From Strigomonas culicis (Eukaryota > Euglenozoa > Kinetoplastea > Trypanosomatida > Trypanosomatidae): DNA of 64,000 bases. Under the pieces are notes generated by a model, which made no database searches, was not told the origin of the DNA, and worked only from the letters and a program-made list of their open reading frames with translations. Positions 4,347-52,858 of this stretch are shown here, piece by piece. The stretch is taken from contig AUXH01000013.1 of NCBI GenBank assembly GCA_000482145.1, forward strand, positions 1 through 64,000. Direction: 5' to 3'. The stretch's first letter is position 1. Each line of letters begins with the position of its first letter. The translations under genes were made by a program, and so were the position numbers.

Positions 4347-6502
4347 TTACTTGTTGGAGTCCGTATCGCTGTGATCTCCGTAGAGGTCTTCCTTTGACAA
4401 CAAGTACTTCTTCTTGCGCTTCGTACTGTGGGATTCCTTCTCGCGCTTCTTCATCTTCGCCTCTTCCTTCGCTGCCTTCAGCAGTGACCCCGCCTCCGTG
4501 GCCTTCACCCGCGCGGCCGTCGCGGAGTCCTTCTTCTTCTTTGTCTTTGCCGTCGCCTCCACCGCCGCCTCGGTAGTGGAAGTGGTGTCCTGCTTCGCCT
4601 TCTTCCCCTTCTTCGCCTTGGGGGGCTCCTCCGGCGCGGCCTCGGGCGGCGCCTCCTCGGACCCGTGCGCCTGCTTCAGTCGCTTGGCCTTCTTATCCGT
4701 GAGGTGCTTCGCGAGCGCCTTGCGTCGCCGATCCTGCCGCTCCGTCTTGGCCGCGCGCTTCTCCTGCTTCGCGAGGGTGCGGGTCTCCTCCAGCTCCTCG
4801 AGCTCGCGCTCGAGCTGCCGCTTGCGGGCCGTGCCGGTGAGCTTTGTGTAGCTGCCGGGGTGCAGGCTCTGGTCCAGCACCAGCAGGGCCTCGCTGTACA
4901 GCACCCGCACGCTCTGCGCGACCTCCTGCGCCACGGCGAAGCGCTGGCACACCCACACGAGGTCGCGGAAGATGGTGCGCACCTGCGTGGTCGCCACGCG
5001 CGCCGCGGCGGCCTCCAGCGTCGCGGGGTCGACCGGCGCGGCGGCGGCGGCGGCGGTGCGCCGCCGCGCGGCTGTCGCGGCGGCGAGGCGCGGTGCTTCN
5101 CTTGCCGCTGCAGCGCCGCCAGCGCGGCCGCGGTGCGCGTCTCGAGCAGCACGCCGCCCACGAGCGGCGGAAAGAAAAAGTCGAGCACATGCTTCTCCAC
5201 ATAGTTGCCGCGGCTCATCGCGTAGAGCGGCAGGCCGGCGGCGAAGCTGACGAAGAGGGTGGGGCTCAGCCCGGCGCGGTTGAACTCGTCGAAGGAAACG
5301 TCGCAGAGGTGCAGCGTCAGGCCTGTGCTCGAGGAGCTCGGGATGATGTACTGCTGGAAGTAGTAGAAGATCTCACTGAGTGCCATGAACACCTCGCGCC
5401 CGGCAGGCGTCCCACCGTAGTGGGAACGGACGTACTCCGCGCCGATGCTCGCGCCGGTGAGCCGGCCGCTGGCGCCCGCCGCTTCCGCGTCGTCGTCCTC
5501 CTCCTGCTCCGCGCGGCGGTCGGCGCCGCCGGCGCCCTTCTCCTCCAGCTGCCGCACCATCGTCACCCACTGGAAGACCATCTTTCGCACGAGGCTCAGG
5601 TACTTGTCGAGGCGGTAGCGGTCCACGGTCGGCCACTCCCGCGCCAGCACACGGAATAGCGAGCCATAGAGGAGCGTCTTGCTGCGCGTCGTCGGCGGCG
5701 CGTCGATGAGCTGTGCGATGACCGCCGTGCACTGGTGCTGCACGAGCGGCTTGTCGCTGTGGTAAAGGCAGTAGAAGACGCCGCGTGCCAGCTTCAGGTA
5801 CAGCAGCTCCACCTGCGACCACGCGGCAATCCACGCCTCGTAGCGCGCGACGGCGGCCGCGCCCGGCGCGGCGCCGCCCGCCGGCTTGCCGCGCTTCGCC
5901 TCCGCCGTCTTCTTCTTGGCCGCCACCTGCTTCTCGCGCTTCGCGTCGACGGCGCGGCGCGCGCGGCGCTGCTTCTTGCGGGCCTCGACCGCCTCGTCGA
6001 CCTCCTCCTCCGGCAGCGCGGTGGCAAGGCGGTCGCCGTAGCGGCCGTAGTTGAGCTTCTCCAGCTGTGCCTGCGCGCGCCGCTCGCGTAGCTCCAACAC
6101 CGCCGCCGCGCGCCGTTCCTTGCGCTCGCGGAAGGCGGCGGCCTCCCGGTGCGTGCGGAGCGCCTCCGGCAGGTTGTGGTACAGCAGCGCGGTCGGCGAC
6201 GGCGGCGCGTGCGGCCCGCGCACCGCCGCGGTGCACGCCGCGGCGAGCTCCTCGGCGTAGCTCGACTCCAGCGCCTGCAGCGGCGCCGACATCTTCTTGA
6301 TGTACGTGGGCACCTCCGCGAGCACGGCATCGCGCACGGCGACCTCGTTGTGTGCGAGGCGCTGGCACAGCAGCTCAACCGCAGCCAGCTCCGTGTGGAT
6401 GAGGTCGCCGCCGGGCAGGCCCTCGGGGCGCACATCCGGGTCCGGGTAGTTGATGGGCAGCTGCGCGAGGCGGCGCCGGAGCTCTTTCTTCTTGATCTTC
6501 AT
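4347..6502 (-). CDS. RRP1: RRP1/Nop52 ribosomal RNA processing protein (frame interrupted by ambiguous base)
   Basis: RRP1/Nop52 is a nucleolar factor for large-subunit rRNA processing. The protein starts at ATG 6502 (MKIKKKELRRR). Family features: AVELLCQRLAHNEVAVRDAV near residues 35-60; the core LKLARGVFYCLYHSDKPLVQ, SLFRVLAREWPTVDRYRLDK and SLVRKMVFQWV near 235-320; and LTLHLCDVSFDEF near 390-410. The C-terminal tail (4347-4997) is Lys-rich, as is typical of RRP1. The frame from 6502 runs into the undetermined base at 5100, and the correct continuation lies in another frame from 5099 down to 4347. If the single n stands for two bases, the total is 719 codons and the protein reads through (...LQRQ-x-EAPRL...). 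I therefore treat the break as an assembly artefact rather than a pseudogene. The insert at about residues 130-220 is Ala/Arg-rich low complexity. Confidence 0.9.
5100..5100. other. Undetermined base (n) causing an apparent frameshift
   Basis: The only ambiguous base in the window. It sits in a very GC-rich stretch of RRP1. The frame arithmetic requires one additional base here to join the N-terminal and C-terminal parts. Confidence 0.9.
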
Positions 6503-8530: not shown

Positions 8531-11500
8531 TTATACGAGTTGCACTAACCCACCCCTGTCGCCTGCGTGTGCCTCCGTCAGCAGCTCCTCCTCCAGCTCC
8601 GCCACCTCCGCACACGCGTCCGGGTGTGTGTAGTAGTACAGGAAGTTATGATAGCCGGCCGGGTTCAGCTCGTGTTGCGCCGCCCACGTGACAAACTCCG
8701 TGAAGCGCACCGCCAGGGGCGACGCCGGGTCCCCGTCCGACGGCGCTGGTGTTGGCGTCTCCACGAGGAAGGGGTTTGTCGCAGCGCTCTGAAAAAAGGG
8801 ATTGGGGCGGTCGGGCTGGAGCGACAGGCCCCAGAAGCGCAACAGCGACTGGATCTGTCGCAGCCGATCCTTCCGGATCTCCTTCCGACCGTAGAGCATC
8901 GTGGGGGAGGAGAAAGGGAAGAAGAGATACGGCGGCGGTGCGCGTGGGGTGGGGGGTGGGGCAGCGTCGCGGCCCACACCCTGATGCGTGCGGCCGCTGG
9001 GGTGGTCATCCAGCACACGTTTGGCAGCCTTCTTCTCCTTCTCTTCTGCCGTCTGCGACGGGGGAGAGCCATCCGGCTCCCCACCGTGGCTGTTCTCGGA
9101 GCTGCTGGCCCACTCGCCGCGCTCCTCCACCCCGCCTGTCTGCGCGTAGAGGAGGTAATCGAACATGACGTACAGCTGAGTGTAGTAGTACACGTAGTAC
9201 AAGTAGCAGCTGAACTCTTCGGCCGCGAGGACGCGCTCCGACTCATCCGTCAGGAGCCCCGCGGTGGCCATGGTCGCGTCGTCCTTCGAGCGGCTCGTGC
9301 TGTAAAACGTCAGCTCCTTGGTCGACAGAAAGGCGCGCCACAAGATGGGGTACAAGAGCGCCTCCATCTCTCGGTTCGTCACCTCCGTGTTCAGATGGCT
9401 GCTGAAGAAGCGGTTAAGGTACAACACATTCGCGGCGCCGTGCTCCAGGTTGTCGATGGTCAGAAAGGGATGCATCAGTGTCTCCGGGGAATGACCCTCC
9501 GCGCGCACGGTCAGTGGGTCGGACCGCTCCCGGCTCATGTCCATGCCCATGGAGTCTTCCAGCATGGGGGTCGTCCGCGAGCCGCGGTAGCTCAGGCAGT
9601 CGGAAAGACTGTTGTAGCTCGTGGACGCGACGATGGCTGTGATGACCGCGAAGGGGTCCTTCCGTCCACGGCCGTCCGACGGGAACAAATAGTTCTGAAA
9701 AAACGTCGCGCGCCGATGCCGGTCCTCCACTGAACGGCTAAGAGGGAAGAACTGTCGCAGCTGGTGCCACACCGTGTTCTGATAGACATAGTGTTCCTCG
9801 AGTCGATACACCGGCCGCGCGACTTCACCCTCGCTCGCCTCCTCGTCCTTCGCAGGGCGACTGCGCGGCAGCGCGGGCGTCGTCGGCGCCTCCGCGAACC
9901 CACCGAGCTGCTCGCGCTCGAACATGCAGCGGGCGTGCTCCGCGTAGCCGTAGGAGAGATGGGTCACGTGGCACGCCACGCGGTGGCAGATCGCGTCCAT
10001 CGTGGCGGTAGCGAAGACGTCCGCCATGGGGTCCGGCCCGACGCTGTGGAGCGGATTGTCCGTGCGGCGCCGCTGCAGCGCCGCCTCCTCTTTCAACAGC
10101 GCCTCCACCAGTGCCTCCCGGATCGCCGCGCGCACGGCCGCCCACCACGGGCCGCGCGCCTCCGGCGGCTCGAGCAGCAGCAGCGGCGGCAGCGCCGTCG
10201 ACAGCAGGTGCACCACACTCGCGAGGAAGTCCTCGTCGTGGTAGCAGTCGATCCCGGTCGGAAAGGGCCGCATCGTGCCCAAGGGCCGGCCGGAGATGGA
10301 GGTGCCGCCCGCCACCGCGGGGGGGCGCTGGCGGCGTGCCTCCTGTGCACGCACCCGCAGATGCACCTCGATGCGCATTTTGTAGAAGAGCAAAAAGTAG
10401 AGGCTCTCGTAGGTGACCATGTACTGCAGCAGGAAGCGGACATCCGCGACGTGCACCTCCGTGTAGGCCAGACCGGCTGCCTTCTTCGAGTGCGTCCTCT
10501 CCAGCGGCATGACGAGGTCCTCACGCCCAATGCACGCGTTCACGCGATTGATCGCCACACGCACGTAGGACAGCCACGCGAGGAAGCAGCGCACGCTCAG
10601 CCCCTCGCTGTTCGCGCTGCCGTCGCTGTCGAGACTGCTCGTCGTCATCGCGGGGCTGCTGCGGCCGCCGCTGCTGTCTCTCTCCCTGCCGCTCTGCGCC
10701 GTCGACGGCCGCTGCACCTCGTCCGCGTCGGCCGGGTCCGCCTCCACGACCGGGGACGGCAGTCCGTGCGCCAGCGGCGCCTCGCCGCCGCGGAGGGCGG
10801 TATCCAGACTCGATGGACTCGTGTGCGCCTCCGGCCCTTTTGGTGCCCCGAAAAGCGTGGAGGCGATGCCAGAGGCGGCGCGCACCACCTCGGCCGCCGG
10901 CAGCGGCGACGCGGCAGGGGCCGGCGGCGGCTTGCCAGCGCCCGCTGGCGGCTCCGCGCCGACACCGCCGTCGCCGCGCGCCGTGACGGCGATGCACAGG
11001 TCCATAAAGTACTCCGCCAGCGTGCCCCCCACATCGTCCGAGCGGAGGTAGCCGTCGTTGAGGAAGAGGAAGGAGTCGAGCTGGTAATAGACGGCGTGGT
11101 CGCGCGCGGGGTCTGCGGGGTCGGGCCGCTCCGCGCTCGGCGGGGGCCGACCCTCGAACAGAAACGGCGCGAACATCGCGGTGCGCAGAGCGCCGTCGTC
11201 CACGCCACCCGCAAATGGAAACCGGCTGGACGCGTCCTCGAGCTCCATCCGCGCGGGGTCCCACCGCTGGCCGCTCAGCGCCCCGAGCGCGTGCTTGTTG
11301 TTGAAGAAGAGGAAGTGGGCCGCGTTGTGCAACGCGCGCTCCGCCTCCCGCACCTCCGCGCCATCGTCGTGCGCGCGTGCGAGGGCGAGCCGCAGCACGT
11401 GGCGGAAGGCATCGGACTGCAGGAACTGCTGGAAGGCCATGCGGTCGGTCGGGCAGTCACGCCAGGCCCCCTCGTCGAACTTGAGCTCTGTCGTGTTGTT

Positions 11501-14500
11501 GCTCTCGAGGTAGTAGCACCACCACTGCTGAAAGTCGTTCAGCGAGATCGCCGTGAGGCTGCGTTGATCGCTGGCGGTGCTGGCGCGTCGCGCGTTGTCC
11601 TGGACGATGGAGTCGAAGAGCTGGCGCAGATCCGCCTCCGGGAGGTGCGCCAGCACGTCACAGAGCCGCTCGTGCGCGATCTTGTCGTCGTCCGACACGC
11701 CACCGAGTCCCTGGCGGAGGACCGTCAACATGTCCTGGAACATCTCAAAATCGATGGCGGCGTCGCGCTTGAAAAGTGACATTGCCCACTCCGCGCCGGG
11801 GTGGCGCTGCAGCGAAGCGGTCGCGTAGGTGTACAGCACGCGCACGTACTCCATCGTGTGCTGCAGGAAGGGCGCGTAGCTCGCCGCGTCCAGTGCCGTC
11901 CGGCTCTCCGTCTTCTTCGACCTCAGCTTCAACGCGTTCTTGCATATGTGGAAGAAGACGCGCGCGTTGTCGACCGTGTTGTACGCCACGCGCGTCACAG
12001 CACCATCCGTCTTATAATAGGCGTCCCACAGCCGCTGCAAAAAGACCTCAAATGTGACACCGGGATGGGCCGTCCCTTTTGTCATATGCGTAAAGGGCAA
12101 CACGGACACGGAGGCGCTGCCACCGCTGAAGGTGAAAAAATCGAAGAGCTGCTCCTCCCCGCGCTTGTCACCGAGAAAGCTCTCAACAAGCAATCCAAAC
12201 TCACCCAACAAGGAAACCGGTAAACGCAAGGTCTCACTGGGCCTGGTGTTCTTTTTCTCCTTCTCCACCGCTGCCGCAATCGCCGTCGTAATACCGTTGT
12301 CCTTCAGTCGATCGGTGTGCAGTAAACAACTACGGCGCGCAACATACTCTGTCATAAAGGCGAGCGTGACGTCGCGCGGTCCGCTGCTATTGCCATGACT
12401 CGTGGCATTGCTGTGCAAACTCATGCCGCTGTTCCGGCGTCCTTGCGCTTCACCGTACAAGTGGTCATAAAAATCCAGTGTCTTCAGACTGTGCGACGGC
12501 TCGCCACTCTTGTGGCGTTCCACCTCTGCGAAGCCGTCCGAGAAGATCGCCTGCAACGGCGTTGGCGCCGAGGAGAGCGGCGCGCCGCGCTGGAGCCGCT
12601 GGAGCACCGGCACCAGCCGCCACCGCTCCCGTTCACGCGCCACCGCGTCCGCACAGACATGTTCGCAGAGCGCTGCGACCTCCTCCTCGTGGAAGACGTG
12701 CAGCGCCGTGCTGGTGGCCTCGCCGCCCGCCTCGCTGGGGATCGTCTTCTCCACACCCGCGACGTGTCCGTACAAGTCATTCAGGTCGGAGACGATGTGG
12801 AGGAAGAGCAGAAAGTCGTCGAAGTGGGCGATGCCGCCGTCGCCGCTCTTCCGGCTCGCCTTGTCGCCGCCGCTGGAGACACTCTCCATCTGGTGCAGCG
12901 CGTTGAGGATGAAACGCCGGTATCGGTTGGTACTGGGGTGGCCGCCGGCCGCCGGCACCGCGGGGAGCGTGAAAAACTGCTCCCGCTGCAGCGCCTCCTG
13001 CGAGGCTTTCGAGAAGAGCTCTTCCTTGCTGATCGTCTTCCCCGGCGGCGGCACGCTGTCCAGGAAGGCGCGGTAGAACTGTGCTAAGCTGTGCTCCCGC
13101 TCCTTCCGCACCCGGTGCAAAGTCAAGAGCTCCTCCCAGGAGAGCGGCGCCGGCAGCGGACGGTGCGGCTCCGCGCCGTCCCGCTCGCACGCGCGCTGCA
13201 GCTCGGACTGCTGCGCCAGAAGTCCGTTGATATCGCCCAACTCCGCCAGCACCTCCTTGTAGAAGTAGGAGCGGTGCTTCGCCTCCTCCTCGGCCTTTTT
13301 GCTCGCCGCGCCCTCTTTTTTTTTCTGCGCCCCTGCGGCCTCATCGTCCTCCTCTTCCTCCTCCTCTTCCTCCCCCTTCCATCGGTTGCGCTTCTTCTTT
13401 GCTCTGGCGTCGCTGTCCAGCAACGCCTCCATGCAGCATACATCGTAGGCAACGAACACAAATGTGATGTACTCCACAAAGTACAAGAGCGGGACTTGGT
13501 CGCCCCCACCCCTGTGAACAGGGTCCATGCGTGACGCCGGTCGGAGTGGGTTCTTCGCGCTCCCATCATTGCTGCGATTCGCCGCGTTTAGGATCGGAAA
13601 AAGCGATAGCGACGACGTCTCCTCGTAGTACCACTTGGCGGCATCGAAGAGCACCATAAAGACCTCCAAATTATCTTGATCATCCCCATGGGCATGGTCC
13701 AACCTCCCCTGGACCTCACCGGCGCCGGGGGCGGCCGTGAAATGGATCCGGTGTGCGATGAAGGCCAGCGCCTCCTTGTGCTTCCTCGTCCACTCCTTCA
13801 CAAACAGACGCACCTTTCGCGCGTTCTTCGACATGGGCACCTTGCCGTCCGCCATCGACGGCGTCGGTGTGATGGGCCGTGAAGATAACCCCGTCGTCGC
13901 GGACGCGGGTGTCAAAGGTCGCGAGTGGCCGTCGTCGGAGTGGCCCAGTCGAAAGCGCATGCTCGTCGACGACATAGTCGCCGTCCGCGACGTCCAGAAG
14001 AGCTGGGCGCGGTACATCATGGAGTCCTTCGCGTAGCACAGCTGGAACAACCGCCGCACGTCGACCGCCTCGTAGCCGTAGTCCCAACGCTTCTGCCGAC
14101 GCGCCGAGCTGACACCGGACAGCGGCGCGACAACCTGCTTCATCGGCCGCTGGTGCTCCACCCGCGCGAGGAAGGCGAGTGACACGGACTTGGTCTGGTC
14201 GAAGAAGGCTAAGAAGTGGAAGTAGTACGCTAAGAAAGTGTAGACAATGTACTGGATGTAGGCGAGCGCGTCCGAGTCCACCTGTACCTCTTCGCTCCCC
14301 GCCGGTGCGCGGCTGGCCGCTGGGAGGTGCCGCTCGTAGCCCTCTCGAATAACGCGGAAAAAGGAAAGATAGGCCTCCCGCGTCGCGCGCTCCTCGTCTT
14401 CGCTCGGCGTCGGGGTGTGGAGATACAGCGCCTCGTCCGTCTCCTCCGCGTGTAGCACGTCAAAGAAGTAGTCCAACACATGTACGCACCGCAGCGGCAG

Positions 14501-14797
14501 AAAGCAGTTCGCCACGTGCGTGTCAACGACGGTGCCGTGCTTCTTCTTCTTCTTTTTATGCGCGCCGGTGGCGTCTCCTTCGTACAGACGGTGCTCTGTG
14601 TCGAAAAAATTGTGCAAAAACGTATCTGAGGGGAACGGGATGGGATGGCTCTCCGCGTCCTCCAGGGGCGCCCGGCCAGCCCCCGCCGCGTCCGCGCGGC
14701 GCCCATGCTGCTGCACCACGTCCCGCGCGCTGGCACTCCGTTGAAGCAGTTCCTGGTGGATGGGTAGGTACTTGGAATGTGAAGAAGAAGACCCCAT
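8531..14797 (-). CDS. Giant calflagin-like protein with degenerate EF-hand modules
   Basis: A 2088-residue protein starting MGSSSSHSKY: Gly2 and Ser5/6 fit N-myristoylation, and there is no Cys3 for palmitoylation. The N-terminus resembles that of the nearby calflagin at 15934 (MGSGSSSSHDD). The C-terminal 300 residues match calflagin in order: LYPILWRAF (cf. DIVQRAFAKA), EEFSCYLYYVYYYTQLYVMF (cf. FRLLLCYIYDYFELTVLF), LRQIQSLLRFWGLSL (cf. AAPRIAAWGA), and VRFTEFVTWAAQHELN (cf. ITFDEFAAWAAAQKLE). Similar aromatic helices recur near residues 180 (YIQYIVYTFLAYYFHFLAFF), 440 (YFVEYITFVFVAYDVCCM), 665, 1025 and 1530, so five or six diverged modules are likely. Canonical Ca-binding loops appear lost. 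Acidic and low-complexity linkers separate modules. Probably a membrane-bound, perhaps flagellar, scaffold; that role is inference. The homology is my reading by eye. Confidence 0.85.
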   Translation of the reverse strand: MGSSSSHSKYLPIHQELLQRSASARDVVQQHGRRADAAGAGRAPLEDAESHPIPFPSDTFLHNFFDTEHRLYEGDATGAHKKKKKKHGTVVDTHVANCFLPLRCVHVLDYFFDVLHAEETDEALYLHTPTPSEDEERATREAYLSFFRVIREGYERHLPAASRAPAGSEEVQVDSDALAYIQYIVYTFLAYYFHFLAFFDQTKSVSLAFLARVEHQRPMKQVVAPLSGVSSARRQKRWDYGYEAVDVRRLFQLCYAKDSMMYRAQLFWTSRTATMSSTSMRFRLGHSDDGHSRPLTPASATTGLSSRPITPTPSMADGKVPMSKNARKVRLFVKEWTRKHKEALAFIAHRIHFTAAPGAGEVQGRLDHAHGDDQDNLEVFMVLFDAAKWYYEETSSLSLFPILNAANRSNDGSAKNPLRPASRMDPVHRGGGDQVPLLYFVEYITFVFVAYDVCCMEALLDSDARAKKKRNRWKGEEEEEEEEDDEAAGAQKKKEGAASKKAEEEAKHRSYFYKEVLAELGDINGLLAQQSELQRACERDGAEPHRPLPAPLSWEELLTLHRVRKEREHSLAQFYRAFLDSVPPPGKTISKEELFSKASQEALQREQFFTLPAVPAAGGHPSTNRYRRFILNALHQMESVSSGGDKASRKSGDGGIAHFDDFLLFLHIVSDLNDLYGHVAGVEKTIPSEAGGEATSTALHVFHEEEVAALCEHVCADAVARERERWRLVPVLQRLQRGAPLSSAPTPLQAIFSDGFAEVERHKSGEPSHSLKTLDFYDHLYGEAQGRRNSGMSLHSNATSHGNSSGPRDVTLAFMTEYVARRSCLLHTDRLKDNGITTAIAAAVEKEKKNTRPSETLRLPVSLLGEFGLLVESFLGDKRGEEQLFDFFTFSGGSASVSVLPFTHMTKGTAHPGVTFEVFLQRLWDAYYKTDGAVTRVAYNTVDNARVFFHICKNALKLRSKKTESRTALDAASYAPFLQHTMEYVRVLYTYATASLQRHPGAEWAMSLFKRDAAIDFEMFQDMLTVLRQGLGGVSDDDKIAHERLCDVLAHLPEADLRQLFDSIVQDNARRASTASDQRSLTAISLNDFQQWWCYYLESNNTTELKFDEGAWRDCPTDRMAFQQFLQSDAFRHVLRLALARAHDDGAEVREAERALHNAAHFLFFNNKHALGALSGQRWDPARMELEDASSRFPFAGGVDDGALRTAMFAPFLFEGRPPPSAERPDPADPARDHAVYYQLDSFLFLNDGYLRSDDVGGTLAEYFMDLCIAVTARGDGGVGAEPPAGAGKPPPAPAASPLPAAEVVRAASGIASTLFGAPKGPEAHTSPSSLDTALRGGEAPLAHGLPSPVVEADPADADEVQRPSTAQSGRERDSSGGRSSPAMTTSSLDSDGSANSEGLSVRCFLAWLSYVRVAINRVNACIGREDLVMPLERTHSKKAAGLAYTEVHVADVRFLLQYMVTYESLYFLLFYKMRIEVHLRVRAQEARRQRPPAVAGGTSISGRPLGTMRPFPTGIDCYHDEDFLASVVHLLSTALPPLLLLEPPEARGPWWAAVRAAIREALVEALLKEEAALQRRRTDNPLHSVGPDPMADVFATATMDAICHRVACHVTHLSYGYAEHARCMFEREQLGGFAEAPTTPALPRSRPAKDEEASEGEVARPVYRLEEHYVYQNTVWHQLRQFFPLSRSVEDRHRRATFFQNYLFPSDGRGRKDPFAVITAIVASTSYNSLSDCLSYRGSRTTPMLEDSMGMDMSRERSDPLTVRAEGHSPETLMHPFLTIDNLEHGAANVLYLNRFFSSHLNTEVTNREMEALLYPILWRAFLSTKELTFYSTSRSKDDATMATAGLLTDESERVLAAEEFSCYLYYVYYYTQLYVMFDYLLYAQTGGVEERGEWASSSENSHGGEPDGSPPSQTAEEKEKKAAKRVLDDHPSGRTHQGVGRDAAPPPTPRAPPPYLFFPFSSPTMLYGRKEIRKDRLRQIQSLLRFWGLSLQPDRPNPFFQSAATNPFLVETPTPAPSDGDPASPLAVRFTEFVTWAAQHELNPAGYHNFLYYYTHPDACAEVAELEEELLTEAHAGDRGGLVQLV

Positions 14798-15933
14798 TCT
14801 AAACTAAAAAGGAAAAAAAAAGGAATAGTATATTTCTTTTAGATAGATGAAATATATATAGAGAGAGCCACGCGTACTCCAGTCAGAGTTGGTGGTATTA
14901 ACTCTATTTTTTCACTTCGCTTGTGCTTCAATTTGACACACCGACATGTAAACAAAAAAAAAAAGAGAGCACAAAAGTATAGATAGAAAGAGATGAGGAG
15001 AAGAGAACAATTACACATGTATGTCTTTGGACGGCAGTATCATAAGCAATGAGTCACAGTGGGCAAAGGATAAAAGATAAAAGAAAAAAAAGATAGAGAG
15101 GGGAAGTTAACAATACAAAAAAAAAGGGTACACAAGCAGCTGTACCAGGAAACAGAATTAAAAAGAAAAGAAGAAACAAATTTTACATTTTGCACAAATC
15201 TAATCGATTATAATATAAAAAGAGAAGAAAAAATTAAAAAAGGATTATCATAAAAAGAAGAGACAACAAGAACTGATAACAAATAGAGCACATCTTAGAT
15301 ATGTATGGAATATCAACTCACCTCTTGAGCATTGATTTACATATGTTTTCTTATTATTGACGCACCTTTCTGTTTTGTGCTTGTACCATTATAAACAATC
15401 ATAATTCTCTGCATATCGACGGTCGAAAGATATTTGCAGATATTCTTGTTGATTTTTTTTTTTTGAATACTGCGAGAAAAAAAAACTAAGAGTACAAGGT
15501 GGACGACAAAGAAACAAAGAAGAAAAAAAGAGGTATGCTTGCTTTTCACTTATCTTAGCATTATTATTATGAATTCTCTGCTTACATTTTTTATACAGTT
15601 TTTTTTTCCTTTTTTTTTGGTTTACTGCCATGGAATGTCACTCAGCCGGCGCATGCTGCATGAGACCTCTCCACAAGCGAAGAAGAAAAAGAGATTTCGT
15701 TCCACTTTTCTCTGCCACACATTGCGATATTTCTCTCCTATTGTGTGTGTGTTTTTTTTTTATTCCAGTGGATCGATTTAAATTGTGAGATCATCACCCA
15801 CAAATGCAAATAGTATATATGTCATCCATCTGGAACAAGAAAAAAAAATGACAATGGTGATGACGAAACTGACTGGGATACCAACCGCAGCAACAGGAGG
15901 GGAGGGAGAGAGAAGGAAGCTCTTCTCTTCCGG
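14798..15933. other. Long intergenic spacer
   Basis: About 1.1 kb of AT-rich, A-run-rich sequence between the giant gene and the first small calflagin. I found no convincing coding frame, tRNA or snoRNA in it. Confidence 0.6.
14803..14824 (-). promoter_or_regulatory. Putative trans-splice acceptor for the giant calflagin-like gene
   Basis: In the sense direction two T runs separated by CC lead into TTTTTAG, with the AG at 14805-14804, six bases before the ATG at 14797. This would be a very short 5' UTR. Confidence 0.55.
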
Positions 15934-16599
15934 CTAGGCCATGCCCAACTGCGCAGCGTCGGGAAGCGTCGTGAAGGGGGCTGAGATGAGGCTCATCGAT
16001 GCTGCCGGCATGCGCTTCTCCCCCTCAATCTTCCGCGTCGTCGCCCACTCCACGAACTCCTCGAAGGTGATGTAGCCCGAGTCGGTGGGGTCGATCCCGC
16101 GAAAGGTGGCGTGCACATCGCCAACGACGGCGCCCCACGCCGCCAGCAGCGGCACCCCCTCGCGGAACTCCTCACGGCTCACCAGCATGCTGCCGGAGGT
16201 GTTGAGCTCGTCGAAGAGCACCGTCAGCTCGAAGTAGTCGTAGATGTAGCACAGCAGCAGGCGGAACGCCAAGAACTCGACCGCGTCCTGCGTCGTGCGG
16301 CTCAGCGGGCACGCCTTGGCGAACGCGCGCTGCACAATGTCCGGCAGGTGCCCCGTGAACTTGTCTAAGTGCAGCACGTTGCGGCACCCGGTGAGCGCCT
16401 CCTCGAGCGTAATGCAGCCGTGGTCATCCGGGTCGAAGGCTTCGAAGAGCTCGATGCGGCGCGCCTTCTCTTTCGGTGTTTGCGCGCGCGGCAGGCGCGC
16501 GCGGACGGCCTCCCACGCCACCGGGTGGCGCAAGGCAGTCTGCTCCCAGCACACCGTCGACGGGGAGTCGTCGTGGGAGCTGGAGGAGCCGCTGCCCAT
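15934..16599 (-). CDS. Calflagin-like EF-hand protein A (no palmitoylation Cys)
   Basis: Calflagins (FCaBP) are Ca-sensor proteins bound to the flagellar membrane by N-terminal lipid. This copy (221 residues) starts MGSGSSSSHDD: Gly2 suggests myristoylation, but Cys3, found in the two neighbours, is absent. EF-hand 1 is FDPDDHGCITLEEA. The segment HLPDIVQRAFAKA and helix FRLLLCYIYDYFELTVLFDE are near-identical to copy B. EF-hand 3 is NTSGSMLVSREEF (Asn at position 1). EF-hand 4 is IDPTDSGYITFEEF, with position 12 kept. The C-terminus extends some 25 residues past the last EF-hand (ending AAQLGMA), unlike B and C. Tandem duplication with B and C is clear; altered lipidation may change its location. 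Confidence 0.9.
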   Translation of the reverse strand: MGSGSSSSHDDSPSTVCWEQTALRHPVAWEAVRARLPRAQTPKEKARRIELFEAFDPDDHGCITLEEALTGCRNVLHLDKFTGHLPDIVQRAFAKACPLSRTTQDAVEFLAFRLLLCYIYDYFELTVLFDELNTSGSMLVSREEFREGVPLLAAWGAVVGDVHATFRGIDPTDSGYITFEEFVEWATTRKIEGEKRMPAASMSLISAPFTTLPDAAQLGMA

Positions 16600-17140: not shown

Positions 17141-17749
17141 TCACGCCTTATCTTGGTCGCCCTCCGCCTCCAGCTTCTGTGCGGCCGCCCACGCGGCGAA
17201 CTCATCAAACGTGATGCTGCCAGAACCGTTCGTGTCGATCGCGCGGAAGGTGGCCGCCGCGTCGCCAACGGCGGCGCCCCACGCCGCGATGCGCGGCGCC
17301 GCTCGCTCCCACTCCTCCCTGCCGATCAGCATGTTGCCCGACGTGTCTGCCTCGTCGAAGAGCACCGTCAGCTCAAAGTAGTCGTAGATGTAGCACAGCA
17401 GCAGGCGAAACGATGCGAAGGTAACCGCGTCGACGCGGCCCTCGCTGGTGGCGGCGGGGCCCAGCTCCCGCGCCTTCGCGAACGCGCGCTGCACAATGTC
17501 TGGCAGGTGTGCTGTGAACGCTTCTAGATGCAGCACGTCGCGGCACCCGGCCAGCACCTCATCGTAGCTCAGCCGCTCCCTGCCGCTCTTGTCGAACTGC
17601 TGAAAGAGCTCCACCCGCCGCTGCTCGTCCGCCGGCGTGCTCGCACGAGGCAGGTGCGCGCGAATGCCCTCCCACGCCGTCTGACGCTCCGCCGCCGTCC
17701 TGCCTTCTGTGCTCTTGGGCGCACCGGTGGAAGAGGTGCTGCAGCCCAT
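17141..17749 (-). CDS. Calflagin / flagellar calcium-binding protein, copy B
   Basis: Start chosen at ATG 17749 (MGCSTSSTGAPKS), giving 202 residues. The upstream open frame is AT-rich spacer translated, and a splice acceptor lies between. MGC...S is the classic double lipidation signal (myristoyl-Gly2, palmitoyl-Cys3) that sends calflagins to the flagellar membrane. EF-hand 1 loop: DKSGRERLSYDE; EF-hand 3: DTSGNMLIGREE; EF-hand 4: DTNGSGSITFDE, the most canonical loop in the cluster. The linker HLPDIVQRAFAKA and helix FRLLLCYIYDYFELTVLFDE are family hallmarks. It ends EAEGDQDKA, nearly the same as copy C. Length agrees with known trypanosome calflagins. Confidence 0.95.
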   Translation of the reverse strand: MGCSTSSTGAPKSTEGRTAAERQTAWEGIRAHLPRASTPADEQRRVELFQQFDKSGRERLSYDEVLAGCRDVLHLEAFTAHLPDIVQRAFAKARELGPAATSEGRVDAVTFASFRLLLCYIYDYFELTVLFDEADTSGNMLIGREEWERAAPRIAAWGAAVGDAAATFRAIDTNGSGSITFDEFAAWAAAQKLEAEGDQDKA

Positions 17750-17751
17750 CG

Positions 17752-17776
17752 GTTGTTGTTGTTGTTGTTGTTGTTG
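17752..17776. repeat. (GTT)n/(AAC)n repeat in the 5' UTR of calflagin B
   Basis: About eight gtt units on the + strand, read as CAA-type repeat immediately before the start codon. Confidence 0.9.
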
Positions 17777-17814
17777 ATCTTGTGTGGGGGTATGAATGTG
17801 GATGTGCGGAGGAT

Positions 17815-17851
17815 TCTGGAATAGAGTGTATACAAAAGAAAAAAAAACAGA
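17815..17851 (-). promoter_or_regulatory. Putative trans-splice acceptor for calflagin B
   Basis: Sense strand has CTG, nine T, CTTTTG, then ACTCTATTCCAG with the AG at 17817-17816, 66 bases before the ATG. Between acceptor and ATG lies a CAA repeat (17752-17776). Confidence 0.6.
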
Positions 17852-18832
17852 TGGAGAGTGTTGTTTCGCTGTTGTGTTTGATATACATATACGTTGGATG
17901 AGAGGATGAGAGAGGAGCAAATAAAAACAAAACATAATACGATCCAAGAGGTTGGAAAAGAAAACTTGTTGTTGCGATGGATGATTGTTTATGTGTGTCT
18001 TTTTGTTTTGGACACGCAGAGCCATCTTCTTTAGATGAATCCATTATTCTTCTTTTCTTGTTTTTACTGTTCTACAATTCGATTTACCAACATTCGAAGG
18101 CAATTCATTTCTTGTTACATTTCTCTTTTTTTTTTTGAAGAAGAAGGGGTCTCGTTTTTTGTGCTTTTCGATTACGGCAATATTCCCTGTCGGGGCTCTT
18201 CCATTGATTGCATTGAATCTACAAAAGAAATAAAGAAATAAAGAGAACACGATGAAACATAGAAAACATATGTACATAAAAAGTTGCAATGTAGTGCATG
18301 ACAGTAATAAGAAAAAAAAAAGAACTCCAATCTGTGAACAGAAAAAAAAAGGCTTAACAATACACTGTGTATATATGAACACTACTAGCAAGAGTAAGAA
18401 CAGTCCCAAAGTCAAAGGGAAAAGAGCGTATGGATGAGTTTGCACCTCAGGTGCCTATGGAGGACATCTATTCTTTACCATAGCTATGACTTGTGTTACG
18501 TTCCGTTGTAGCTCACGTGATTGTTTGTGAGCGTTTTTGTTTGTTCGTGTTCACTCATTAGAAGAGAGGAGCAAAGTGCATACGTACTCTCCAGTAATCA
18601 CATAAAGAACAAGAGGGGAAAAAAGGATAAACAAAAAAAAAGAGAAAAAAAACGCAACGCAATAGCGGCACGCCGCACTGCCAAATCCTTACGCGTAAAG
18701 ATGGCATGCTGTGCACTGTAGAAGGTGGTGGTCTCGGTAAGCCCTCATTGATTTCATTTTTATAAGTTTTCTTTATTATTATTACTATTATTGTGTTTCG
18801 ATGGTGTTGTTCATTTGCTGCACGTGTCCTTC

Positions 18833-24656: not shown

Positions 24657-27600
24657 TTAGATAAAGTAAGGGTCGTGGAAGAGGTCTGCCGCGACCGGTC
24701 GCCGCTCCGGCCGCGGGCTGAGACAGCGCGTCATCAGCGCGAGCGCGGCGGGGTTGGCCACCCGCGCTGGATCCATCTGCGCCACAATGTCGCCACGGGA
24801 GTAGAGCCGGAGAAACTGCACATCGGACAGATGGTCCGCGCGCACCCACGTCACCTCCTCCTCGTAGTCGGGCCCCGCTGTGGCGCCCGGCGCGGCCTCG
24901 CTGGCCGTGATGGAGAGGTCGATCGCGTTCGCGTGCATCGGCGCGAGCCCCGCGTCGCCGCTGCCGCGCGCCAGCGGGCGGCGGTAGACGACGCGCTGCA
25001 GCCACGGCAGCACGCCGGTCAGCATCTCATAGAGTGTGATGCCGAAGGACCACACGTCACTCGCGAACGTCGGCGCCGCGCCGGCCGCCACCTCCGGCGC
25101 CATGTACAGCGGCGTCCCGCGCAGGCAGAAGACGTCGTCCGCGATGCCGACGCTGTTCGCCTTGGTGACGCTCGAGCCGAAGTCGCTGATTTTGCAGCTA
25201 CCGTCGAGCCCGAGCAGCACGTTCTGCGGCTTGAGGTCCGCGTGCACGACACCGCTGCGGTGCAGGTACGCAAGCCCGCGCAGGATGTCAGCCGCGTAGC
25301 GCCGCGCGAGCGGCGGCGGCAGGCCGCCGGCGCCGTACGCCTTCACCGTGCTCGTCAGCGTGCCGCCCGGCATCAGCTCCATGAAGATGACGAGGTAGGG
25401 GTCGCAGAGCATCCAGTCCGAGTAGTGCACAATGTTGTCGTGATAGAGGCGGCACGCGAGGTTCACCTCCTGTACGACGTCACGCACCTCGACGTTGTGG
25501 CCGGAGAGCTGGATGCACTTGAGCGCGCGGATGGCACCGGACGAGGAGACCACCATGAACACCTCCGCGAAGCTGCCGCTGCCGAGCGACTGCGGCATGC
25601 GGCGCCAAGCCTCGCCGGCGTGGTCGGTCAGCACCAGCGGCAGCTCCAGCACGCTGCCGCTGGACTGCCGGTAGGACGTCGAGAGAAGCGTCTCGCGCCT
25701 ACTGACAAAGATGCTGGCGCTCGGCCGCGCGTTGGCGTTCGCGGCGGCCGCGGCGGGTGCGGCGCCGTTCGTGGCGGCGGTGGTGTTGTTCGTGTTCATG
25801 TCCGAGGAAGGGACGGGCAGCAGGCTCACCACGTTCGACTTGTTGCTCGTGTTGCCCTCGCTGCTCGGGTCGTCGCTGCCCGCTGGCCGCGCGGCCTCCG
25901 TACCGGTGGCCCGCCGCACCAGCGCCGACGGCGGCGGCCGCGGCTCCTCCCCCGGCGCCGCGGGGAAGTCCATCTGCGGCGCCGGCTGCCGCCGCGTCGG
26001 CGTGCGCTGGCTCTTCGACGCGACGCTGGAGCTGACGCGGGAGCCGCCGAAAAAGGCGGCCGGCGAGCGGCTGACATCGGTCACATCGGAGGTCGTCGTT
26101 GTCGCGCTGCTGGCGACGGTTGCGAGGACGCCGCCGCTCACCGGGTCCAGTGTGTCACCGGGCGGGCGCAGCGGCGGCAGCGCACCCGGCGGCTCGGCCA
26201 CCGGTGCCGCGACCGCCGGCGCGCCGCTCACGCTCACGTCGTTGAGTGGAATCATAAAGTTCGAAAAGTTGCTCGCGCTCGTACGCTGCCGGTCGTGGCT
26301 AGCGGTCGCCTGGCGCGCGCGGGGACCGCTGCGGCCCGCCGGCGGCGGCGCCGCGGTCGCGCCGTCATCGCCGTCGAAGCCGAAGTTGATGGAGACCGCG
26401 GAGGTGGTGCGGCCGGCGGCGCTGCGCGCGCCGGCGCGGTGCGACTTGGAGGCCGCCGAGCGGATATCGCGAATGTCGAGTCGGTCGTACTGCAGCCGCA
26501 TCTCCGCGTCCTGCACGGCGATGCCGAGGGCCTCGAAGGGGGGCAGCTGGAAGCGGCAGAAGCGCGGCCGCGGCGGGTTCATCTGGAGGAGGTGGCGCAC
26601 GCTCGTCGCGAGGTTCGTGGCGAGCTCCGGGTCGTACAGCTTGCCCTCCTGCAGCAGCTGCAGCGCGGTCGCGAGCTGGCCGTTCACCGCCGCCCCGTAG
26701 GCCGCGCGAAAGCGCCGCACCCCTTCCTGCACATAGCCGTCGCGCGCGATGGTGGGGTCAAGGACGTGGTACAGCTGGACGGCGTGTACGCGGTTATGCA
26801 GTGGAATGATGTTGTCGACGGGCACCGTGAAGGCCGGTGGTAAGAAGGACGCGACGCGGTCCGTCACGATGACGCGGCCGCACGCCAGGTCGTGCTTGCA
26901 GAGCTCCAGCAAAAAGTTGAACCCCGAGCCGAAGACGATGCGCGCGACGCGCTGGTGGGCCCCGCAGTTCCCGACAAAGTAGCGGCCCGCGTCGATCGTC
27001 GCGCGCAGATTGCGGCGCAGCCGCGTGGGCAGCTTCTTGAGGATAGTGAGCGTACAGGCCGTCGCGATCTGGACGTGCTGCGGCATGGGGCTGTGGGCGC
27101 CGAAGCTGATGCCGACGTAGTCGGGCCGGAACACCTCCAGCACGCCGCCCCACCGCAGCACGCAGCTGATCGCGGTGTGGAGGAAGCGGCTCATGTCTTT
27201 CTCCATGCTCTCGCCGTCCACGTAGCGGTACGTCATGGACAGCATCACGTAGGTGCAGCTCACCGCGCTGAACTTGTTCACGCGCGCCGGCACCGCCGTC
27301 GCGAGGTCCAGCCGCAGTGCCTTCACGTCGCCGCTGGGGTGGTACACACTGCTGTTGTCCCCGGTCGTCGTCGTGGTCGTCGTCGTGTTGCCAAAGCCGT
27401 TGACCGTGCTGGCCGCCGTCTGCATGGTGCCGAACGCCATGGGCAGCGTGCGGCTGCCCACTGGCGAGTGCACCTCCACACGCACGCCGGGGTCGCGCGT
27501 CTCGCCGGCGTGCGGCCCCGCGCCATGCATGCCGCCTGCGCCGCCGGCGGTCGTGGCGGTGATGGCCGCGGCGGGCTGGATGATGCGCACGCGGCGGCCC

Positions 27601-38354: not shown

Positions 38355-41300
38355 CTAAGTCTGAATGAACCGCAGTATACTTTGTTGAATGATCAACACT
38401 AAATTTTTGAACTTTGTCTTGGCACTCAGTCCTAGTCGGATATTATTGTTATTAGTTGTATTCCCGACCGACAGAAGCAGCACAATCATCTCCTTCACAT
38501 GGGCATCAATCTGCTGCATAGCCTCACCGATGGCATTCGGGCCTGCAGCCGCAAAGGCCCCACTAAGTCGCTCCATGATGATTTTGTTATACACAATATC
38601 GTAAAACACGTTCTGCAAATCTCCAATCTTGTTAGGATTTGCGCCATCACTCGTAGGCTGCTGCTGCTGCTGGATGTAGCAAACAGCAATGTTCTGACAC
38701 ACATTCCCAATCTCGCCGAGCAACAGAAAGTTCTTCGCATCGCTCACGTCAAACGTGAAGCGGTACGCGTGCGGGCCCGCCGGCAGCGCGCTCGCGGACG
38801 CACTCGTCGCCTGATCCGGCGCCTCCATGTAAAACAGCAAGTTGAACATCTGAAACGGCAGGTGGTAGACAATGAACTCCTGCATAAAGTAAGTATAGTT
38901 GCTGACCGCCGCCGCCTCCGCCGCGGCGTCGCGCGCGTGTGGCGCGGCGGCGGTGCCATCCGGCGGCAGCAGCGACCGCGGCGGCTGCGTGTGTAGGGTG
39001 CGCACGAGCGTCTGCAGTGCGGACTTGCCAATCTCCAGGTCGGCGGGCAGCAGCAGCGACAGCAGACACTCGTTGAGTATTTCCGCAAACACGGTGCGCT
39101 TCGCCTTGTCGGCGGCGTCCGCCTCCGCTCCGGACGCGCCGCGGAGGTACCACAAGACGTTGTTCAGCAGGCCATGCGGGTTCGGCTGGGGGATCAGATT
39201 ACACAGCTGGAAGAGAAGGAGGATGTAGCACTTGTAGGACTCCGCCAACTCGCGGCCCTCATCGCTCAGCACGTTCAGCTGCGGCAGCACGGTGAGAAAG
39301 CTGGAGAGCGGTCCGTCCGCGCCGGACGCGGCGGCCGCCGACGGAGGCGCCCAAGACACCAGCAGCAGACGCTCCAGGGAGCTCACCCCATGCAGCTTCT
39401 CAAACAGCGCGGACGTGTAACTCTCCAAAAAGACGATATTCGCGTTCGTGTTGCTGCAATCGGTATTGGCGGACACCATTAACAGCTTCGGAAGGGTCTG
39501 TGTGGTCAGGCGTATGAGCTTCGTCAGCTCCGGAACGGACTGAATGCAGTAGAAGAGCATCTGAGAGAGAAAATAAAAAAAGCCGTCGTTGCCGTTCGGA
39601 TTCGCAGTTGAATTAGTGTTCGTCAGGAAGGGAATCATTTGCTGAAAGTACGCGAAGAAGATGTCGCGAAGAAGGATTTGCGTGACGACAATGTTCGACA
39701 GCGCGCGCAGGTGACCCGGTGTGTGGCTCTCTTTTTTATCACTGAAGAATAAAAACAACACTTTTGTCGTGACGTGCTCCTGGATAAGCCCTCCTATTTT
39801 CGCATTCAGCACACTCTTCAACTGACTGTACAAGACTTGATTCGAGCTATAATTTGCATTATTATTGTTATTGGTCGTGTTTGTTTGACTGTTATTAATG
39901 TTCGTGTTGTTATGGAAGCCCTTCAAACAGGCAGTGAGGGCGCCTAGGTGGCCACACAAGGTTTGTATGTAATCCATGCTCGCGTTGCCATTCTGCGCAT
40001 TCGATAAAGCATCCAGTGTCACACTTAAAGGCTCGATCATGGATCTCAGATAGAGCAGCGTCTTGAGCTCCATGCTGTTGTCGACCAGACAGTCTAGATT
40101 AGTCGTATTGTTATTACTATGGTGTTGAAATAACATTTGAACATCATTCTGAAACAAAATGGAGATCAAAACACCGACAGACTCGAACAGCTCTTTCCGA
40201 TCCGCTTCCGAGAAGAGCGCCGGATGCGGCGCTGCCGCACCGGCCTGCGACGACGGGCACATAAGCGCCAACAAGGCCTCCAGCATCGGCTCCGCGAAGG
40301 GCAGCAGCTCCAGCCGCAGCTCGGAGATGAAGTGTTGAAAGTAGTAACAGATACGGGACCGCGTCTTGGCGTTCACCGCGTTCTGAATCCCGACGGGCGA
40401 CAGCAGGAACTTCTCGAGTAGAACCGAGACAGCCTGGTTGGCCTGCTGCGGCCGCTGCTTTTGAAAGCGGAAGAAGAGTGCGTAGCGGTCCATGACCTCG
40501 AAGAAGCTGACGTGGACTGCGGGACTGTTTGCGTAGTACTGCAGTACGGGAGAGCATAGCAAGGCCTCGATGAGATGATTCACAAAGGACGTCATGTACT
40601 CCACCTGCGGATTATTATTATTATTACTATTGCTATTGTTGTAAAGTGTATCTAAACGGAAGGACTCGCCCATTTCGTAGACGTAGCGGAGAACGGCCTC
40701 CGCATCGTCGTCCGTGATCCTGTGGCCCTGCTGATTCTGCTCCGGCGGCTGGCTGACGAAGTGCACGAGCTCATTCACCTTCATCTGGACGTGATCCCGG
40801 ACAAAGTTGATCGCGGCGCTGGTCGCACTGCTCTGTGTATTCATCCTCCGAAAGATGGTACGCAGGAGCTGATAGTACAGTTTACGGACCTCTACGACGC
40901 TCTCATTGTTCTCCCAGTAAAGCTCATTAATGTACTTATTAATATACTTGATCCGCGTCAGCTGAAACGACTTTTCAATCAGTAGCTGCAACTCCTCGTC
41001 CGTGAGGAGCATACAATTATTATTATTGTTGTTGAAAGCAGATCCATTCGCCGCCGCGGCCGGCGCCGAGGCGGCCGACGGCTGCAGCACCGCAGCGATG
41101 GTCGTGTTCTTGATGTAGTTTTGGAAAAACGTCAAGAAGTGCTCTGTGGAGGTCAACGCGTGTAGGGGGTAAAGGAGGATGAGAATGACGTACGCGCTGC
41201 GATGCAGCACGTAGTTGATGTTCTGCAAGAGATCCAGCGACAGCGCGGACAGGGGGATATCTGGGATGACATAACTGCTACTCGTGGCACTACTCAGCTG

Positions 41301-41991
41301 CTGCTGTATACCATTATGATTCGTATCCCTCGATGTGTAGAGGTTTGTGAGGGTCTCCAACAGCGCCAGGAGCTGCTCCGCCATGACCGACGCAAACTTG
41401 CAGAGCGTTTGAAAGTACGTGAAGAGGCTGTTCGTGGTGCCACTCGCGGGCCCGGCATCCAACGTGTCGAGCGCGGCGCAGGCCATGCGCTCATTCGCTG
41501 GCAGACCGGCTTGGCCGGCGCACAGCACATTCGCCTCAAACCGGTCCACCATGTTGTACGGAATGCGCAGCGACCACAGACCGTCGAACGTAATGCAGCT
41601 CGAGTTGCTCTCCGTAAGCTCCGCGGTGAGGGCCGCGTCGCCGCCGCCAGACGGAGACCCGCCGCCAAATCCGTTCGGCGCTGCGAAGAGCGGCGATGCC
41701 GCCGCGGCCGCGGACGACAGCGCCATAAGCCGCTGCTGCTGCAGGAACTCAAAGACGAGCTCCGGCAGCCGCGCCTCCAGCCGAAAGGCACCCATCGTCT
41801 CCACCTTGAGCCCGGGCTGCTGCTTCTTTTGCGCGAGCGCGACGAGGCAGCAGAGCGCTGGCGCCTGTAGGTCCGAGACCGCGCCCGCCGCGGCCGCCTG
41901 TGCGTGGGGCTTGTACAGCGGCTGCAGTGACGGCGGCGGCGCGTGGCCGGAGGGCGTCTGCGCGAGGGTGTAAAAGAGCTCAATCCAGTTC

Positions 41992-42028
<37 letters not shown>

Positions 42029-52600: not shown

Positions 52601-52824
52601 CTTTCGGCGCCACTTGGACTTCATGAGGCGGGCCAGCATCGTCATGGCAACACCCTTGCAGTCGAAATCAGAGGCCGCTGCGCATTCCATCAGCATAAAT
52701 GTAAAATGCAACGCCACCTCCTCCGTGTTCGTGTTGCTATTATGACTCGTCGTGTTGTTCCTGTTTGGATGTCGGAGCGCGTGGACTTGCTGTGCTTGAA
52801 TTGCCAATAGCTGATTATACTTAC

Positions 52825-52858
<34 letters not shown>

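What the first reader, a model, noticed from the sequence alone, without database searches (positions are those of the whole stretch)
8531..14797. A 2088-residue giant relative of calflagin built from degenerate EF-hand modules
The C-terminal 300 residues follow calflagin block by block (RAF helix, YLYYVYYYTQLYVMFD helix, FWGLSL, then FTEFVTWAAQHELN versus FEEFVEWATTRKIE in the neighbour). Comparable aromatic helices recur about five more times upstream, and the N-terminus MGSSSSH is nearly that of calflagin A. It lies directly downstream of three normal calflagins. The Ca-binding loop residues look lost, so a lipid-anchored scaffold may have arisen from a Ca sensor by duplication and fusion. 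I know of no described calflagin of this size.
Basis: partly seen in the sequence, partly recalled or inferred. Interest (0 to 1): 0.78.

Follow-up and report, generated by a model that had tools for sequence, protein, structure and literature searches.

The report
Giant protein ending in calflagin-like domain
Next to three ordinary flagellar calcium-sensor genes of an insect trypanosomatid lies a very large protein whose tail is a strongly altered copy of such a sensor with its calcium-binding loops burst open by long inserts; the rest of the protein is of unknown origin.

Summary
The 2088-codon frame is real, but on the minus strand (14797 to 8531), in what is almost certainly Strigomonas culicis. 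Residues 1674-2048, near its C-terminal end, are a diverged calflagin (FCaBP) domain. A five-calflagin profile matches in calflagin order at 16.7 bits. None of 3000 shuffles reaches that, and apart from the calflagins the best of 107 sampled ORFs scores 1.8. HMM-HMM comparison agrees.

The helices are kept, but the EF-hand loops are broken: about 68 extra residues at EF1, 84 at EF3 and 17 at EF4, with most Ca ligands gone. The N-terminus is a myristoylation-type MGSSSSH without cysteine.

EF-exit-like helices upstream exceed shuffles but not every unrelated helical protein. No homologue was found, by an insensitive search; orthologues in other trypanosomatids cannot be excluded. Both structure predictions failed (pLDDT 39).

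Most likely a membrane-anchored scaffold using a calcium-blind calflagin fold for docking; that function is inference.

The parts
8531..14797 (-). 2088-codon open frame of the giant protein
   Evidence: one match in the genome at E <= 0.001, no stop inside; GC3 0.84 overall
14798..14830 (-). Polypyrimidine tract with AG (14805-14804) and in-frame TAG (14806-14804) just upstream of the ATG; likely trans-splice acceptor
   Evidence: read directly; splice role inferred
14771..14797 (-). N-terminus MGSSSSHSK: fits the N-myristoylation pattern G-{EDRKHPFYW}-x2-[STAGCN]-{P} (pattern recalled); first Cys only at residue 98
   Evidence: 5 of 101 sampled ORFs that start with M carry the pattern, 3 of them in this window (c3, c1, giant; c2 was read there from an upstream ATG and so not counted); for the Cys
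8654..9778 (-). Diverged calflagin (FCaBP) domain, residues 1674-2048
9689..9778 (-). Residues 1674-1703, matching the calflagin start (W, R, P, RR, F positions) up to the EF1 loop
   Evidence: hhalign of the slice 1601-1850: 48.8%
9464..9688 (-). Expanded EF-hand loop 1 (residues 1704-1778, about 68 beyond calflagin; where exactly the second half of the loop lies differs between HMMER and hhalign)
9389..9463 (-). EF1 exit helix, residues 1779-1803 (LTIDNLEHGAANVLYLNRFFSSHLN against LSYDELLAGCRDVLHLEEVTARLE)
9149..9388 (-). EF2 entering helix (ILWRAF against VVKRAF) and long aromatic EF2-exit/EF3-entry helix, residues 1804-1883
   Evidence: helix score 12.3, 0 of 300 shuffles; 64.1% for the slice 1701-1950
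8882..9148 (-). Expanded EF-hand loop 3 (residues 1883-1971 in place of 5 in the profile, 84 extra), rich in P, S, E and K
8819..8881 (-). EF3 exit helix, residues 1973-1993 (EIRKDRLRQIQSLLRFWGLSL)
   Evidence: hhalign 141-198 against 1972-2048
8654..8731 (-). EF4 loop and exit helix, residues 2023-2048 (DPASPLAVRFTE FVTWAAQHELNPAG). In the BLAST register the loop has 12 residues with D1 and E12 kept, A and P at 3 and 5, Gly6 lost; hhalign puts 17 extra residues inside the loop instead of before it
9800..14797 (-). Residues 1-1666: no detectable relative; helical-looking stretches with charged and low-complexity linkers
15934..16599 (-). Calflagin 1 (221 aa; MGSGSSSSH, first Cys at residue 17)
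17141..17749 (-). Calflagin 2 (202 aa from MGCSTSS); body reads the same, by eye, as the Strigomonas culicis database entry P0001
18833..19444 (-). Calflagin 3 (203 aa; MGCITSK)

Best explanation
A calflagin gene copy became the C-terminal domain of a very large protein. Shown: residues 1674-2048 descend from a calflagin, keep its helices in order, and have lost regular Ca loops through long inserts in or next to the EF1, EF3 and EF4 loops. Inferred: the protein is N-myristoylated and sits on a membrane, probably flagellar or cell-body, like calflagins. The calflagin fold then acts as a calcium-independent docking module while the 1650-residue forepart serves as a scaffold or spacer. It would work as a permanently switched adaptor and not as a calcium sensor.
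For: Co-linear HMM matches. 0 of 3000 shuffles reach the score. The best of 107 sampled ORFs, the calflagins apart, scores 1.8 against 16.7 bits. A profile made only from the two calflagins of solved structure (3cs1, 2lvv), without the neighbours, finds three of the same segments: 8.8 bits, 0 of 3000 shuffles, best shuffle 8.2. hhalign gives 87-89% for the C-terminal domain and separate co-linear sub-matches for its start, middle and end (48.8, 64.1 and 14.9% in the slices where each is best), against a best of 8.8% in 150 shuffled slices. Gap-tolerant alignment 25.4 against 12.4 +- 1.3, 0 of 500. Position beside the calflagin array, and the MGSSSSH N-terminus.
Against: The domain is too diverged for Pfam: no FCaBP match for the whole protein or for the 421-residue C-terminal slice; 13 bits against a cut-off of 27 in a 253-residue slice. 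The profile from the three neighbours alone scored only 7.0 bits, reached by 2 of 3000 shuffles. The hhalign match of the domain's end falls to 8.7% in the 417-residue slice and 2.7% in the whole protein, no better than the best shuffle. A frame of 483 codons elsewhere in the genome (L005, a weak calflagin hit) scores 9.4 bits with the same profile, so scores of 7-9 are not rare. The first, more permissive gap-tolerant alignment did not separate from shuffles. No homologue by which to judge constraint. No structure of usable confidence. Localization, acylation and scaffold role are untested, and there is no N-terminal Cys for palmitoylation.
Confidence: 0.5

Rival explanations
1. One reading: the whole protein is an array of about six degenerate calflagin or EF-hand units with expanded loops, made by duplication and fusion.
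For: EF-exit-like half motifs in residues 1-1640 number 11 against 4.1 +- 2.0 in global shuffles (reached by 1 of 400) and 4.1 +- 1.8 in local shuffles (0 of 400) at threshold 3, with similar results at 4 to 6. Examples by eye: IAHFDDFLLFL (656-666), VTFEVFLQRL (914-923), ISLNDFQQWW (1084-1093), DSDG..GLSVRCFLAWL (1390-1409). The neighbours' profile places weak (negative-score) extra pieces at 174-224 and 1447-1498 on the same calflagin segment.
Against: By the gap-tolerant profile residues 1-1640 score 11.9, reached by 253 of 500 shuffles, and no 400-residue window does better than 28 of 200. hhalign gives at most 0.8% and Pfam no EF-hand. The half-motif excess is gone at thresholds 7 and 8 (68 and 39 of 400 global shuffles) and is not unique: 1 of 38 other long ORFs is denser at threshold 3, and 1 of 38 reaches the giant at threshold 5; the latter matches Exportin-T. 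Self-BLAST finds no internal repeat.
Confidence: 0.2
2. An old trypanosomatid-wide large protein beside calflagins, whose orthologues are merely too diverged or not held here; the gene would then be an uncharacterised family and not an innovation of this lineage. (Compatible with the best explanation; it concerns age, not function.)
For: Papers report unnamed genes beside calflagins elsewhere: Tb927.8.5480 and 5490, 'hypothetical', after the T. brucei array (PMC2991269, one passage seen; 5480 is 'hypothetical protein, conserved' in a table of PMC4210626, one passage), and three 'novel' genes around FCaBP in Leishmaniinae (PMC10939215, section 8 read). The word-based protein search is insensitive: with a calflagin as query it returned a single entry.
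Against: No hit for the whole protein (7976 candidates scored) or for region 1779-1882 (188 candidates, E <= 10). Sizes and sequences of the named neighbours were not available. [quoted passage not shown] not every ORF was scanned).
Confidence: 0.35
3. Assembly or gene-model artefact: a degenerate calflagin pseudogene joined in frame to an unrelated gene.
For: The C-terminal domain is strongly diverged and full of inserts; the window contains one N, in another gene.
Against: One uninterrupted frame of 2088 codons with no unknown residue and high GC3 along its length. The long inserts lie at loops, not in helices; a pseudogene would take stops and frame breaks anywhere. One match in the genome.
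Confidence: 0.05
4. Chance resemblance of aromatic amphipathic helices, no common descent.
For: Single pieces score weakly (each <= 6.2 bits), aromatic runs bias such scores, and the neighbours-only profile is reached by 2 of 3000 shuffles.
Against: Several pieces in calflagin order, local-composition shuffles, a background of real ORFs, and a profile built without the neighbours speak against it.
Confidence: 0.04

Closest known systems
Calflagin / flagellar calcium-binding protein (FCaBP; Pfam PF22592; structures 3cs1 and 2lvv)
   Same: Order of helices over the four EF-hand positions; W, R, P, RR, F start; VL.L, RAF and EFxxWA blocks; Gly2 N-terminus; location beside a calflagin array
   Different: 2088 instead of about 200 aa; about 68 and 84 extra residues in EF1 and EF3 loops; Ca ligands mostly lost; no N-terminal Cys; below the Pfam cut-off
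Kinetoplastid PPEF phosphatases (PMC1885993, passages seen)
   Same: Large acylated kinetoplastid proteins with degenerate C-terminal EF-hands; no calcium binding was detected for the L. major protein in a gel-shift assay
   Different: Those are phosphatases of 923-954 aa; no phosphatase family matches here

Membership tests
Calflagin / FCaBP | Match to Pfam FCaBP_EF-hand above cut-off (27 bits) | tested here: not met
   No match for the whole protein; 13 bits in one slice, none in the longer C-terminal slice; the genome search lists only the three neighbours
Calflagin / FCaBP | Calflagin helix order over four EF-hand positions | tested here: met
   Co-linear sequence matches 1674-2048; at sequence level only, as no usable structure was obtained
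Calflagin / FCaBP | Regular 12-residue Ca loops (EF3 and EF4 in the neighbours) | tested here: not met
   EF3 loop broken by 84 extra residues; EF4 keeps at best D1 and E12
Calflagin / FCaBP | N-terminal Gly2 in a myristoylation pattern | tested here: met
   MGSSSSH fits by sequence; acylation itself not testable
Calflagin / FCaBP | N-terminal Cys for palmitoylation (reported as well conserved in the species aligned in PMC10939215, passage) | tested here: not met
   First Cys at residue 98; neighbour c1 also has none in its first 16 residues
Calflagin / FCaBP | Flagellar membrane location and Ca binding | not testable with these tools
   Needs experiment
EF-hand protein throughout | EF-hand or calflagin profile matches in residues 1-1650 | tested here: not met
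EF-hand protein throughout | Paired EF-hand folds in a predicted structure | tested here: inconclusive
   pLDDT 38.9 (residues 1651-2058) and 39.6 (905-1125)

The most novel reading that the evidence does not exclude
The entire 2088-residue protein is a chain of several calflagin-type EF-hand units, all with burst loops: a giant, myristoylated, calcium-blind scaffold born by repeated duplication and fusion of a flagellar calcium sensor.
Probability: 0.17. Interest if true: 0.68.

Novelty: new variant of a known kind. Interest (0 to 1): 0.45.

Why it matters
In the papers I listed (40 of 47 holding 'calflagin'; 25 of 51 holding 'FCaBP' and kin), no title or abstract start speaks of a giant calflagin protein; 'calflagin-like' and 'FCaBP-like' occur in none of the 25 listed. 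I opened only a few of them. A giant protein with a calflagin-derived, calcium-blind domain next to the sensors would show how a sensor turns into a structural part, and would give an entry point to a membrane or flagellar scaffold in symbiont-bearing trypanosomatids.

Tried and rejected
Full-length and regional protein searches for homologues: none. The word-based search is weak: calflagin 3 itself returned only one entry from 1380 candidates. Pfam and NCBIfam on the whole protein, Pfam on eight slices, PDB sequence search: nothing above a cut-off. Weak matches elsewhere in the genome (C159 and C509 with calflagin 3; two places on C27 with residues 1668-2058 of the giant, E 0.014 and 0.19) were looked at. 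The C27 places show no calflagin signal (at most 1.4 bits) and mainly proline-rich or scattered similarity; the C159 frame scores 9.4 bits and was not taken further. A first very gap-tolerant alignment was too permissive: observed 54.3, null 41.9 +- 4.7 with a maximum of 59.5, so it did not separate; I then raised the gap costs and report. Splitting a calflagin into halves to steer MAFFT failed, and MAFFT misplaces the last third of the domain; I use the hhalign register, though the C-terminal structure job still ran on the alignment. AlphaFold2 on that alignment and on residues 905-1125 alone: mean pLDDT 39, so no fold search was made. In one search the part with the two PDB-derived calflagins ended in a script error; it was repeated. 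In some searches, 3000 shuffles were made and HMMER listed scores for 1237 (five-sequence profile), 1323 (neighbours) and 1057 (PDB pair); it listed 56 of 107 ORFs; the rest lay below its reporting. The half-motif count looked significant against shuffles but not unique among real proteins, so I do not claim it.
Full report
Where it is. The frame runs on the minus strand from ATG 14797 to stop 8531, 2088 aa; the plus-strand frame read over the same stretch is broken by stops. TAG lies in frame 9 nt upstream, and a pyrimidine tract ending in AG precedes the ATG, as expected of a trans-spliced trypanosomatid gene (general knowledge). GC3 is 0.84 overall, between 0.69 and 0.93 in blocks of 150 codons, and 0.83-0.91 in the calflagins. 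Calflagin 2 of the window reads the same, from MGCSTSS on, as a database entry named flagellar calcium-binding protein of Strigomonas culicis (compared by eye). I therefore take the organism to be S. culicis or a very close strain; the genome has 17.7 Mb in 670 contigs, and the giant is its only match to itself.

The C-terminal domain. A profile of five calflagins (three neighbours; 3cs1 and 2lvv as printed) finds five pieces in the giant. Four are in calflagin order (1673-1703, 1779-1803, 1844-1882, 2029-2048) and one is a weak extra at 1447-1499; the total is 16.7 bits. Of 3000 shuffles none reaches it, best 6.5. Of 107 ORFs from 200 kb of the same genome plus the window, only the three calflagins (320-350 bits) score higher; the best of the others scores 1.8. 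One frame outside that sample, picked because it was a weak calflagin hit, scores 9.4. A profile without the neighbours gives 8.8 bits and 0 of 3000 (best shuffle 8.2); the neighbours alone give 7.0 and 2 of 3000. hhalign gives 86.9% for 1644-2088 and 89.1% for 1644-2060. Cut into 250-residue slices the domain returns separate matches for the start (48.8%), middle (64.1%) and end (14.9%), in order, against a best of 8.8% in 150 shuffled slices; the end match is the weakest and falls to 8.7% and 2.7% in longer stretches. A profile alignment that allows long inserts gives 25.4 against 12.4 +- 1.3, 0 of 500; an earlier, looser version did not separate. Common descent of this domain with calflagins is thus well supported by several independent measures, though no single piece is strong.

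Anatomy of the domain. Following hhalign: helices are kept, while about 68 extra residues sit in the EF1 loop, 84 in the EF3 loop (1883-1971 in place of 5 profile positions) and 17 at EF4, with some more in the EF2 region. In the BLAST register EF4 is DPASPLAVRFTE against DPTDSGYITFEE of calflagin 1: first and last acidic positions kept, the others and the glycine lost. Loss of calcium binding is inferred from this, not measured.

The forepart. Residues 1-1650 show nothing clear above control. Gap-tolerant alignment of 1-1640 gives 11.9, reached by 253 of 500 shuffles, and its best window is reached by 28 of 200. hhalign gives at most 0.8% for slices of 1-1650; Pfam slices show no EF-hand; and of 84 EF-hand_7 matches listed in the genome at E <= 10 none lies in the giant. 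With the giant's own C-terminal helix added to the profile, the best (1448) is reached by 15 of 300. EF-exit-like half motifs are more frequent than in shuffles at thresholds 3 to 6 (11 against 4.1 at threshold 3) but not at 7 or 8. Against 38 other ORFs of 500 aa or more, one is denser at threshold 3, and one, an Exportin-T-like protein by Pfam, reaches the giant at threshold 5. I read this as mainly a sign of amphipathic helices, compatible with but not proof of more EF-hands.

Relatives. The protein search found none for the whole or for residues 1779-1882. It is a weak test: calflagin 3 found only one entry, although solved calflagins of other species match it at E 8e-53 and 2.7e-43. T. 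brucei has hypothetical genes Tb927.8.5480 and 5490 after its calflagins (PMC2991269, one passage seen), and Leishmaniinae have three novel genes around FCaBP (PMC10939215, section 8 and passages read). Whether any is the orthologue could not be tested.

How it may work. Calflagins are anchored by N-terminal acyl groups (PMC10939215, passages). The giant has Gly2 and a fitting pattern (5 of 101 sampled ORFs do, three of them in this window: two calflagins and the giant) but no Cys before residue 98. The simplest reading is a myristoylated, calcium-blind scaffold with a calflagin-derived docking domain. The homology is shown (I would put it at about 0.93); anchor and scaffold are inference (about 0.4).

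Verdict. Observation partly confirmed, interpretation partly supported; a new variant of a known kind, of moderate interest until orthologues or a structure tell what the forepart is.

Noticed in passing
4676-6502 (-): Nop52-like gene (Pfam Nop52 on the part 5202-6502, E 1.7e-28); its translation holds an unknown residue (the window has a single N), and the reading after it looks like another frame, probably an assembly gap.
   Followed up: partly
17141-18025 (-): The longest frame of calflagin 2, and the database entry P0001, start upstream of the probable true start MGCSTSS at 17749, adding a Gln-rich stretch that is probably 5' untranslated.
   Followed up: partly
24657-30590 (-): 1977-aa protein with hydrophobic stretches near its N-terminus and a C-terminal protein kinase domain; a possible receptor kinase, which I recall as unusual for trypanosomatids.
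   Followed up: no
43691-58687 (-): 4998-aa PI3/PI4-kinase-type protein (Pfam E 1.9e-40) with long poly-Asn runs; Asn runs recur in neighbours (38355-43229, 60508-63261).
   Followed up: no
giant residues 650-666 and 1390-1409 (12800-12850 and 10571-10630, -): Two EF-hand-like remnants by eye (KSGDGGIAHFDDFLLFL and DSDGSANSEGLSVRCFLAWL) that no profile confirms; the EF-exit half-motif profile scores 10.5 from residue 1398.
   Followed up: partly
L005 (G000:C159, frame of 483 codons): A second protein of this genome with a weak calflagin-profile score (9.4 bits; E 0.07 with calflagin 3); nature not determined.
   Followed up: partly
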